Of a DNA stretch of 64,000 bases, positions 51,610 through 54,067 are shown one piece after another (within the stretch, counting starts at the first letter, position 1; each line of letters opens with the position of its first letter). The notes under the pieces are model-generated. The model was not told the DNA's origin, ran no database searches, and saw nothing but the letters and a program-made list of their open reading frames with translations. A program made the translations under genes and the position numbers. Source of the DNA: Ignavibacteriaceae bacterium (GTDB lineage Bacteria; Bacteroidota; Ignavibacteria; Ignavibacteriales; Ignavibacteriaceae); contig JAHBUO010000001.1 of the NCBI GenBank assembly GCA_019638025.1, positions 186,001 to 250,000 on the forward strand, read 5' to 3'.

Positions 51610-52248
51610 TTAATTATACCATCTCATAATACCAACCACTTTCCCTATTATCGAAAAATTTTCTGAAAAGTTTATATCTATTGGCTTATAATTATCATTT
51701 TCCGGAAGAAGTTGAATTTTCCCTCGCTTATTTGAAAATCTTTTCACCGTTGCCTCATTATCGATCATTGCCACAACAATGTCATTGTTTATAGCTTCTG
51801 ATTGAGATGAAACAATTACTAAGTCTCCGTCAAATATTCCGGCGTTAATCATACTATCACCTTTGACGCGAAGAGCAAAACTCTCGTTCCCTTTTTTAAT
51901 AAGATTAGGGTCAATTACCAAATTCCCTTCAATATTTTCAATTGCTGAAATCGGAACACCCGCAGCAACTCTACCAACTATTGGAATCCTTGCATAGGAT
52001 TCATCAATTCTGAAGATGTTTGAATTTGATTCTTCGTCAAGAACATTAATGGCTCTGCTCGAATTACTCTCCACTGTTAAATAACCTTTTTTCTCAAGAG
52101 CATCTAAATGTCTTTTTACTCCGAATGTTGAAACCATTCCGAAATTTCTTGCAATCTCACGCAGTGTAGGCGGATATCCATTTTCATTTCTGAACTGATT
52201 TATAAATTCAAGAATTTCTTTTTGACGATCAGTTAGTTCTTTTTTCAT
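51610..52248 (-). CDS. lexA: LexA repressor
   Basis: 212 residues. N-terminal winged helix (LTDRQKEILEFINQF, PPTLREIARNFGM) and the C-terminal autoprotease: cleavage bond Ala96-Gly97 in VGRVAAGVPI, catalytic Ser132 in GDSMINAG and Lys169 in NEATVKRF, with the same spacing as E. coli LexA. It represses SOS genes until RecA filaments trigger self-cleavage. Two candidate operators lie immediately upstream (52254-52297), the first overlapping the ribosome binding region, so autoregulation is expected. First gene of a three-gene operon. Confidence 0.97.
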   Translation of the reverse strand: MKKELTDRQKEILEFINQFRNENGYPPTLREIARNFGMVSTFGVKRHLDALEKKGYLTVESNSSRAINVLDEESNSNIFRIDESYARIPIVGRVAAGVPISAIENIEGNLVIDPNLIKKGNESFALRVKGDSMINAGIFDGDLVIVSSQSEAINNDIVVAMIDNEATVKRFSNKRGKIQLLPENDNYKPIDINFSENFSIIGKVVGIMRWYN

Positions 52249-52253
52249 GATAT

Positions 52254-52271
52254 AGTGTCCAATTGTTCACT
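52254..52271. promoter_or_regulatory. candidate LexA operator 1
   Basis: AGTG-N10-CACT palindrome (AGTGTCCAATTGTTCACT) with a CAATTG centre, beginning 6 bases upstream of the lexA ATG. Shares its pattern with the second site 26 bases away. Confidence 0.65.
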
Positions 52272-52279
52272 ACAAATAT

Positions 52280-52297
52280 AGTGTGCGGATGTGCACT
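52280..52297. promoter_or_regulatory. candidate LexA operator 2
   Basis: AGTGTGCGGATGTGCACT, again AGTG-N10-CACT. Two copies of the same palindrome in front of lexA strongly suggest an autoregulatory operator of a form unlike the classical CTGT-N8-ACAG or CGAAC-N4-GTTCG. Confidence 0.65.
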
Positions 52298-52328
52298 TGT
52301 CAAGGGAAAAGGAAATATTTTTTAAAAT

Positions 52329-52362
52329 AAAAAAACCGCAGACTGTTTCTGCGGTTTTAAAA
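52329..52362 (-). terminator. terminator after proS
   Basis: On the minus strand AAAACCGCAGA-AACAG-TCTGCGGTTTTTTTATT: an 11-bp stem with a T tract, 17 bases after the prolyl-tRNA synthetase stop. Confidence 0.9.
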
Positions 52363-52378: not shown

Positions 52379-54067
52379 TTACTTCAACAAGTCTTTTATA
52401 GTATTAATTAGATTATCTATTTCAACTTCAAAACGTTCACCTGATTTACGGATTTTTACCTCAACTTTATTTTCCTTCAGTTTCTTTTCTCCAACGATTA
52501 TCTGAATCGGCATTCCGAGTAAATCGGCATCATTAAATTTGAATCCGGCTTGCGCATCTCTTCTATCATCAAACAGAACTTCAAATCCTTCTTTTTGAAG
52601 TTGGGCATATAAATTTTCAGAAGCCGTTATTACTTCTTCTTTCTTCATATTTAAACCGATAAGATGAATTTGAAATGGAGCAAGTGAAGTATCCCAAACA
52701 ATTCCTCTTTCGTCATGGTGTTGTTCGATGTAGCAAGCAATAACTCGTTCAACACCGATTCCATAACTTCCCATAATAATAGGATGTGATTTTCCATTTT
52801 CGTCTAAGAACAAAGCTCCCATAGACTCAGAATACTTTGTCCCAAGTTTAAAAATATGCCCTAGTTCGATAGCGGGAAAGACATCGAGTTTTGAATCACA
52901 TCTTGGACAATTTTCACCTGCTTTAATTATTCTTAAATCAGCGTATTCTATATTCGGAACATCGCGCGATAAATCAATTCCCCCGATGTGAAAATCATTT
53001 TTGTTTGCTCCGCTAAAAAGATTATTTAAGTTTCTTAATCTTTCATCGGCTATTATTCTACCTTTAAATCCTACCGGACCAATAGAGCCCGCATCTGCAC
53101 CGGTAAATTCTTTAAGTTCTTCGGGATGCCCCGGTCTTACACCGCTACCTGTTACTTTCTCAAGTTTAGTTTCGTTAACTTCCTCATTTCCCAACATTAA
53201 AACTAAGACGGCTTCTTTGTCATTAATATATACTCTTGATTTCGCACATTGAGTTTCATCAATATTTAAGAATGCACAAAGTTCATCGATTGACTTTACA
53301 TTCGGTGTGGAAATTTCGTAAATGTCTTTGCTTACATCATCTCTTTTAAGTGCTTCAACTTTTGAAGTCGCAACTTCAACATTTCCGGCATATCCGCAAG
53401 ACTCGCAATAAGCAACGGTATCTTCTCCTGCCGAAGATTTAACCATAAATTCTTCCGAACCACTTCCTCCCATTGCACCGCTTGATGCACCAACTACAAA
53501 GAATTTTAAACCACATCGTTCAAAAATATTTCTATAAGCCGAATCATGTAATTTATATGATTCGTTTAATCCTTCTTGGGTTGTATCGAAAGAGTAAGAA
53601 TCTTTCATCAAAAATTGTCTGCCGCGGATAATTCCGCTTCTGGGACGTGGTTCATTTCTGAATTTAGTTTGAATTTGATACCAAGTTTGAGGCATATCCT
53701 TATAAGAAGCTAAAACCCTTCTGGCATGATAAGTCATAATTTCCTCATGAGTTGGTGCGAGGATATATTCTCTATTCTTCACATGAAACATAGTATCGCC
53801 AAATGCTTCAACTCGATTTGTCTCTTCCCAAATTTCTTTTGGGTTTAACGCAGGAAGATGAAACTCTTGTCCTCCGATTGCATCCATTTCCTGGTGAATT
53901 ATTTCGCAAACTTTTTTAACAACTTTATAACCTAAAGGAAGAAAAGAATAAATTCCTGCGGAAAGCATTCTGACCATTCCGGCTCTAAGCATAAGAACGT
54001 GACTTGTAACAACCGCATCATTTGGTACTTCCTTTAACGTTGGAATAAACGATTTACTAAGTTTCAT
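52379..54067 (-). CDS. proS: prolyl-tRNA synthetase (bacterial type)
   Basis: 562 residues. Class II motifs: TSHVLMLRAGMVRMLSAGIY at the N-terminus, motif 2 TKFRNEPRPRSGIIRGRQF, motif 3 near GSYGIGVERVIAC, an editing insertion (about 225-380) and a C-terminal anticodon-binding domain (PFQIHLIGLNMKKEEV). It charges tRNA-Pro. Length and editing domain place it in the bacterial ProS type 1 group. Single-gene unit with its own terminator. Confidence 0.97.
   Translation of the reverse strand: MKLSKSFIPTLKEVPNDAVVTSHVLMLRAGMVRMLSAGIYSFLPLGYKVVKKVCEIIHQEMDAIGGQEFHLPALNPKEIWEETNRVEAFGDTMFHVKNREYILAPTHEEIMTYHARRVLASYKDMPQTWYQIQTKFRNEPRPRSGIIRGRQFLMKDSYSFDTTQEGLNESYKLHDSAYRNIFERCGLKFFVVGASSGAMGGSGSEEFMVKSSAGEDTVAYCESCGYAGNVEVATSKVEALKRDDVSKDIYEISTPNVKSIDELCAFLNIDETQCAKSRVYINDKEAVLVLMLGNEEVNETKLEKVTGSGVRPGHPEELKEFTGADAGSIGPVGFKGRIIADERLRNLNNLFSGANKNDFHIGGIDLSRDVPNIEYADLRIIKAGENCPRCDSKLDVFPAIELGHIFKLGTKYSESMGALFLDENGKSHPIIMGSYGIGVERVIACYIEQHHDERGIVWDTSLAPFQIHLIGLNMKKEEVITASENLYAQLQKEGFEVLFDDRRDAQAGFKFNDADLLGMPIQIIVGEKKLKENKVEVKIRKSGERFEVEIDNLINTIKDLLK

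What the first reader, a model, noticed from the sequence alone, without database searches (positions are those of the whole stretch)
52254..52297. Paired AGTG-N10-CACT palindromes as a candidate SOS operator
Two copies, AGTGTCCAATTGTTCACT and AGTGTGCGGATGTGCACT, lie 26 bases apart directly upstream of lexA. The form differs from known LexA boxes of E. coli, Bacillus and alphaproteobacteria, and would define a lineage-specific SOS box.
Basis: partly seen in the sequence, partly recalled or inferred. Interest (0 to 1): 0.55.

Follow-up and report, generated by a model that had tools for sequence, protein, structure and literature searches.

The report
Own SOS switch of Ignavibacteria-like bacteria
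Two palindromes in front of the DNA-damage repressor gene lexA are very probably its own binding sites, of a form typical of one order of bacteria, where they also sit at genes for error-prone DNA polymerases.

Summary
The two palindromes lie before a canonical LexA gene. AGTG-N10-CACT alone is too loose (33 sites against 36 control sites genome-wide); the real box is AGTGNNC(A)NN(T)GNNCACT. In 48 of 50 lexA promoters of relatives the pair is kept exactly 26 bp apart (40 of 50 with at most one mismatch per box), mostly with the upstream box filling the -35/-10 spacer. The box marks this order: 19 of 25 genomes, against control level elsewhere in the phylum (9 of 222). In the own genome its four exact sites lie before lexA (two), dinB and the finger half of a split DnaE-type polymerase. 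recA shows none (0 of 30). The core TGNNC-N4-GNNCA has the layout seen in Fibrobacter lexA promoters: a new variant of a known kind.

Two unexpected findings: 37 of 59 genomes carry a second LexA with a different box (ACCATACAAATGTATGGT) and different DNA-contact residues; both genomes of the window's genus lack it, and their dinB carries the first box. In the own genome only the finger half of the split polymerase, not the catalytic palm half, has the box. All is sequence inference; no binding was measured.

The parts
51610..52248 (-). lexA (LexA1), 212 aa; VAAG, GDSM and TVKRF motifs present
   Evidence: TIGR00498 228.8 bits, cut-off 110.95; Pfam LexA_DNA_bind and Peptidase_S24; motifs read in the translation; their reading as cleavage site and Ser-Lys dyad is recalled
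52254..52271 (-). LexA box B (minus strand AGTGAACAATTGGACACT), 5 bp before the ATG
   Evidence: the pair is kept in 48 of 50 lexA promoters, control 1 of 50
52280..52297 (-). LexA box A (minus strand AGTGCACATCCGCACACT); 17 of its 18 bp form the -35/-10 spacer
52298..52303 (-). -35-like element TTGACA, abutting box A
   Evidence: read; TTGAC starts 6 bp (41) or 7 bp (7) before the box in 48 of 48 paired promoters
52275..52280 (-). -10-like element TATATT; its first T is the last base of box A
   Evidence: read; TTGACA (<=1 mismatch) and TATATT (<=2) around box A in 41 of 50

Best explanation
The pair is the autoregulatory operator of lexA. LexA dimers bind an 18-bp palindrome, AGTGNNCANNTGNNCACT. 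Box A lies between the -35 and -10 elements and box B 26 bp downstream, over the probable transcription start, so bound LexA blocks RNA polymerase. Damage-activated RecA would trigger self-cleavage of LexA and derepress lexA and the few other box-bearing genes: in the window's genome dinB (Pol IV) and the finger half of a split DnaE-type polymerase. Shown here: sequence, conservation, promoter geometry, target genes, and a recognition helix that goes with the box. Inferred: binding, repression, the transcription start and RecA-triggered cleavage.
For: Canonical LexA next to the sites. The pair is at exactly 26 bp in 48 of 50 lexA promoters (each box <=3 and both together <=5 mismatches; 40 of 50 with each box <=1; reversed-pattern control 1 of 50). 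41 of 50 have TTGACA-box-TATATT. In the own genome the four exact AGTGNNCNNNNGNNCACT sites lie at promoters of SOS-type genes: lexA (two), dinB, DnaE finger half. Of the 30 finger-half promoters fetched, 28 have the box within 2 mismatches (19 exact; reversed pattern 4 of 30), against 0 of 19 palm-half promoters scanned and 0 of 30 recA loci. The stricter form AGTGNNCANNTGNNCACT is in 19 of 25 genomes of the order (control 0 of 25) and 9 of 222 outside (control 16 of 222). LexA1 proteins share the recognition helix ST(F)GVKRH; the paralog with another box has NR(A/S)TVQQH. Box2 is in 0 of 50 LexA1 promoters and box1 in 0 of 36 LexA2 promoters.
Against: No binding or expression data. recA lacks the box in 30 of 30 loci, so the inducer itself is not seen in the regulon. 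Allowing one mismatch in GTGNNCNNNNGNNCAC gives no genome-wide excess in the own genome (136 against 168 control), so weaker targets cannot be told from chance. A single box within 2 mismatches is found in all 50 lexA1 promoters, but the reversed pattern at that looseness also hits 18 of 50, so the pair, not single loose hits, carries the weight. A few of the 48 pairs are poor (for example G027, G054). The own genome is only 86% complete.
Confidence: 0.88

Rival explanations
1. The palindromes are the operator of another dimeric repressor that happens to control lexA.
For: No binding data; the box is not at recA.
Against: The other targets are SOS-type polymerase genes. The box type goes with the LexA recognition helix: LexA1 genes have box1 and LexA2 genes box2, without exchange. 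LexA proteins commonly repress their own gene (established knowledge).
Confidence: 0.06
2. The palindromes are chance, or DNA/RNA structure without regulator binding.
For: The plain AGTGN10CACT is at control level genome-wide; 13 of 100 shuffled windows hold two or more.
Against: Exact 26-bp spacing kept in 48 of 50 lexA promoters from 39 genera while the central bases vary; controls 1 of 50 and 0; recurrence at the DnaE finger half and some Y-family polymerase genes.
Confidence: 0.01
3. The box belongs to the already known Fibrobacter-type LexA box and is not a motif of its own.
For: Same core layout TGNNC-N4-GNNCA and the same place in the -35/-10 spacer of three Fibrobacter-type lexA promoters; after the ten best matches, the next LexAs in the scan are Fibrobacter; helices STFGVKRH and STNGVRSI are similar.
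Against: The outer AG/CT is nearly fixed here, while the three Fibrobacter sites have AA or TT / TT; Fibrobacter fixes GTGCA where this box varies; those promoters show one box, not a pair; two more Fibrobacteraceae promoters lack the core (5 of the roughly two dozen Fibrobacter-type loci inspected).
Confidence: 0.2

Closest known systems
Fibrobacter LexA box (TGCNC-N4-GTGCA; consensus recalled, sites seen)
   Same: Core layout TGNNC-N4-GNNCA and the place in the lexA -35/-10 spacer.
   Different: Here the palindrome reaches AGTG/CACT, positions 5, 6, 13 and 14 are free, and there are two boxes 26 bp apart.
Verrucomicrobia LexA box (TGTTC-N4-GAACA; recalled, the paper is not held)
   Same: As recalled, same spacing; several sites here read TGTTC-N4-GNACA.
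   Different: The AG/CT flanks are nearly fixed here and the inner half-site is free. Not tested against Verrucomicrobia sequences.
Balneolaeota LexA motif (TTACACATATTTTWTACATA; PMC7739468, passages read)
   Same: LexA of a neighbouring lineage that controls lexA and translesion polymerases.
   Different: A direct repeat, not a palindrome; recA is included there.
[quoted passage not shown] PMC8565304, sections 3, 12, 20 read)
   Same: S24 repressors with two different boxes; polymerase genes prominent in the regulons.
   Different: Those repressors have a CI-type N-terminal domain; here both proteins score over the canonical LexA cut-off.
Leptospira interrogans with two lexA genes (PMC3789691, search listing and start of abstract only)
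   Same: Two lexA genes in one genome.
   Different: Not compared in detail.

Membership tests
canonical LexA (TIGR00498) | LexA winged HTH plus S24 peptidase domain above the curated cut-off | tested here: met
   228.8 bits against 110.95; Pfam PF01726 and PF00717
canonical LexA (TIGR00498) | Ala-Gly cleavage site and Ser-Lys dyad | tested here: met
   VAAG, GDSM and TVKRF present in the translation; their meaning is recalled knowledge, cleavage not tested
LexA operator (SOS box) | palindrome in the lexA promoter, conserved in relatives | tested here: met
   pair at 26 bp in 48 of 50 promoters, 40 of 50 by a strict count; control 1 of 50
LexA operator (SOS box) | same box at other SOS genes | tested here: met
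   dinB and DnaE finger half in the own genome; 28 of 30 finger-half promoters fetched
LexA operator (SOS box) | box at recA (common, not universal) | tested here: not met
   0 of 30 recA loci
LexA operator (SOS box) | binding by LexA and damage-dependent derepression | not testable with these tools
   needs gel shift and expression assay
Fibrobacter LexA box | TGC at the start and GTGCA at the end of the core (consensus recalled) | tested here: not met
   in 96 sites position 5 is A49 C23 T22 G2, position 13 A46 T37 G7 C6, position 14 G36 A35 T25
E. coli LexA box CTGT-N8-ACAG | CTGT/ACAG half-sites | tested here: not met
   half-sites are AGTG/CACT

The most novel reading that the evidence does not exclude
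This order runs two canonical LexA repressors side by side with mutually exclusive operators: LexA1, box AGTGNNCANNTGNNCACT, for lexA1 and the finger half of a split error-prone DnaE; LexA2, box ACCATACAAATGTATGGT, for its own gene and, in part of the genomes, a following DUF72-dinB run that sometimes also holds the palm half. Splitting a C-family polymerase between palm and fingers and placing the finger half under LexA1 makes damage control gate the assembly of the polymerase. Where the palm half follows lexA2 and the finger half keeps the LexA1 box (clear in G053, weak in G055), both repressors would have to fall. In the window's genus LexA2 is not found and dinB carries the LexA1 box, a possible natural case of one LexA taking over another's target.
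Probability: 0.5. Interest if true: 0.75.

Novelty: new variant of a known kind. Interest (0 to 1): 0.55.

Why it matters
LexA boxes change between lineages, and a published model (PMC8565304, section 20) explains this by lexA duplication, divergence and takeover of targets. This order offers a dense natural series for testing it: of 59 genomes, 58 with LexA1 and 37 also with LexA2 over the cut-off, two non-overlapping boxes with matching recognition-helix residues, and a genus without LexA2 whose dinB carries the LexA1 box. The split polymerase with its box on the finger half is a layout I did not see in the four papers I opened (parts of each); I made no search of its own for it.

Tried and rejected
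Plain AGTG-N10-CACT as a genome-wide regulon signature: rejected, at control level. One-mismatch GTGNNCNNNNGNNCAC: no excess (136 against 168; the tool lists only about the first 50 of the 136 places). I looked at 15 stretches around stronger sites. Of the eight exact GTGNNCNNNNGNNCAC matches, four are the promoter sites of lexA (two), dinB and the DnaE finger half; C88, C104 and C120 lie inside ORFs and C67 lies between convergent ORFs. A one-mismatch site inside a dnaA-like ORF (C1:292450) was set aside as chance.

recA as a target: rejected; no core match within 300 bp upstream and no box (<=2 mismatches) in the whole 3-4 kb loci, 30 of 30. AND-gate of both halves as a general rule: rejected. 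The palm half has neither box within 450 bp in 19 of 19 loci scanned (19 of 40; mostly those away from lexA2), and in the own genome it follows a purD-like ORF. Against this, in G012 the palm half shares the finger half's box (not among the 19). The palm half follows lexA2 in 3 of 36 fetched loci, and by coordinates also in G036, G046 and G035; but in G036 and G046 the finger half follows it there too, and G035 showed no separate finger half.

LexA2 as a recent copy of LexA1: not supported. LexA2 is one clade (100/100) outside LexA1 plus outgroups, but the program warns that its long branch may be misplaced, and LexA1 was not shown to be one clade (2 changes; one clade in 45% of bootstrap trees).

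Papers: ten searches; those aimed at this lineage (12, 67, and 11 for Chlorobi) listed no paper whose title or abstract start concerns its LexA box. The library holds open-licence papers only, and I opened four (PMC8565304, PMC7739468, PMC3919608, PMC3091678).

Full report
WHAT IS THERE. The two palindromes are at 52254-52271 and 52280-52297. On the minus strand, the strand of lexA, the region reads TTGACA - AGTGCACATCCGCACACT - ATATTTGT - AGTGAACAATTGGACACT - ATATC - ATG. The upstream box fills the 17-bp space between a TTGACA and a TATATT element, and the second box lies just before the start codon. The gene is a full canonical LexA (TIGR00498 228.8 bits; PF01726 and PF00717) with VAAG, GDSM and TVKRF. 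The stretch TATATTTG also fits the Bacteroidota promoter element TAnnTTTG (recalled; 25 of 48 paired promoters fit).

IS IT MORE THAN CHANCE. Conservation decides. The ten best lexA matches among named records (L016-L025; six of the ten bear Ignavibacteria-type titles, the others Bacteroidetes, Chloroflexi or none) all show the core upstream of lexA, six of them twice; L094, a more distant Ignavibacteriae LexA near the end of the 80 loci, has none. I then took 50 of the 58 lexA1 genes found over the cut-off in 59 relatives, from 39 genera (30 loci; 20). In 48 of 50 two boxes are exactly 26 bp apart (each <=3, together <=5 mismatches); by a strict count (each <=1) in 40 of 50; with the reversed pattern in 1 of 50; in 0 of 100 Markov rounds. 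In 41 of 50 box A sits between TTGACA (<=1 mismatch) and TATATT (<=2). The 96 sites give AGTGNNCANNTGNNCACT, with C at position 7 in 95, G at 12 in 92, A at 8 in 86 and T at 11 in 67. With positions 8 and 11 free there are 116 sites against 33 control sites in 59 genomes. A draw of 247 genomes of the phylum finds the stricter form in 19 of 25 genomes of this order (control 0), 2 of 36 of the rest of the class (control 5) and 7 of 186 of the rest of the phylum (control 11): outside the order it is at control level.

OTHER TARGETS. In the own genome the four exact sites are lexA (two), dinB (C17) and a 557-aa gene on C93. That gene matches the second half of DNA polymerase III alpha (finger domain, HhH) and follows an ftsZ-like ORF (named by eye). 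Its partner, with the motifs PDIDLD and VKIDLLSQRS, is a separate 539-aa gene on C118 after a purD-like ORF; the Pfam result (PHP and palm-type domain) is for the G012 copy. Long frames of a usual DnaE, about 1,150 aa, are also listed in most genomes. Stand-alone palm halves occur in 40 of 59 genomes and finger halves in about 40 of 59 (38 near full, plus shorter frames in G051 and G059). Of the 30 best finger-half loci, 28 hold the LexA1 box within 2 mismatches (19 exact, 7 with one, 2 with two; reversed pattern 4 of 30), one holds the LexA2 box (G021) and one neither; in that genome, G046, the gene follows the lexA2 operon by coordinates. Of 19 palm-half promoters scanned, none holds either box; G012, not among them, has palm and finger halves divergent around one box. 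recA holds none in 30 of 30.

THE SECOND LexA. 37 of 59 genomes have a second match over the LexA cut-off; I fetched 36 (not the G014 copy, at a contig edge). In 35 of 36 the promoter has ACCATACN4GTATGGT within 2 mismatches (21 exact, 12 with one, 2 with two); the exception is G064. LexA1 promoters never have box2 (0 of 50, CCATACN4GTATGG <=2), LexA2 promoters never box1 (0 of 36, <=2). CCATACN4GTATGG occurs in 36 of 59 genomes, in 34 of them at lexA2 (G029 and G064 have it elsewhere; G013, G014 and G021 have extra copies); the control occurs in 3. The positions that contact DNA in E. coli LexA are Ser39, Asn41, Ala42, Glu44 and Glu45 (PMC3091678, passages); matched by eye with a recalled E. 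coli sequence they are in LexA1 S 50, F 45, G 50, K 48, R 46 of 50 and in LexA2 N 35, A 25 or S 11, T 36, Q 30, Q 32 of 36. LexA2 is followed within the roughly 3 kb fetched by a DUF72 gene in 23 of 36 loci, dinB in 14, both in 13 (DUF72 identity by Pfam for one copy); some stretches were too short to see more, and 12 of 36 showed neither.

LOSS OF LexA2 IN THE WINDOW'S GENUS. G000 and G012 have one LexA each and no LexA2 box, and both have the LexA1 box at dinB. Over Y-family polymerase genes the LexA1 box (<=2 mismatches) lies within 120 bp upstream in 7 of 21 loci of genomes without LexA2 over the cut-off and in 0 of 14 loci of genomes with it (Fisher p = 0.027); for dinB-type genes alone 4 of 12 against 0 of 13 (p = 0.039). 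One locus (G048, a genome without a full-length LexA, no box) was left out of the 21; in G052 a box lies 791 bp upstream, near the divergent finger half, and was not counted. The two groups were scanned with different patterns and lengths (CA..TG form, 400 bp; freer form, 1,200 bp); all seven hits pass the stricter form. Some genomes counted as lacking LexA2 are incomplete. The association is modest; it agrees with target takeover but does not prove it or its direction.

COMPARISON WITH WHAT IS KNOWN. The core TGNNC-N4-GNNCA has the layout of three of five Fibrobacter-type lexA promoters inspected, in the same spacer position (L026, L027, L028 with; L038, L047 without). The published consensus of Fibrobacter and Verrucomicrobia boxes is recalled, not read. 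[quoted passage not shown] PMC3919608 (passages) lists one Ignavibacteria genome with DnaE1 plus DnaE2 and does not speak of a palm/finger split in the passages I saw. I therefore call the box a new variant of a known kind.

LIMITS. Everything is sequence inference. The genomes are related, so counts are not independent events. The phylogeny's bootstrap had not fully settled.

Noticed in passing
L286:2980-4653 (G000:C93:103482-105152) and L288:426-2045 (G000:C118): A DnaE-type polymerase is split between palm and finger domains into two unlinked genes; the finger half follows an ftsZ-like gene and has the LexA box, the palm half follows a purD-like gene and has none within 450 bp.
   Followed up: partly
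L206-L241: Second LexA paralog with its own near-invariant box ACCATACAAATGTATGGT, followed in 13 of 36 loci by both a DUF72 gene and dinB within about 3 kb.
   Followed up: partly
L279:789-4201 (G012:C118): Palm and finger halves of the split polymerase are divergent and share one LexA1 box in the other genome of the window's genus.
   Followed up: partly
L269 near 2583 (G042), L348 (G062), L352 (G026): A different Y-family polymerase gene (LDFNSYFAS type) has the LexA1 box about 55 bp upstream in three genomes without LexA2.
   Followed up: partly
L099 at 1014 (G000:C67:11613): Perfect palindrome GGTGATCAATTGATCACC between two convergent ORFs; it looks more like a terminator than an operator.
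   Followed up: no
L242 (G048:C9): G048, same order, has no full-length LexA, only a short S24 match below the cut-off directly before a UmuC/DinB-type gene.
   Followed up: no
L094 at about 2968-2987: A more distant Ignavibacteriae LexA has another palindrome upstream (TGGTAGTTATATGACTACCA), a possible third box type.
   Followed up: no
window 52335-52357: Between the proline--tRNA ligase gene (52379-54067) and lexA, both on the minus strand, lies an inverted repeat (ACCGCAGA...TCTGCGGT) flanked by A/T runs, a likely terminator; seen by eye only.
   Followed up: no
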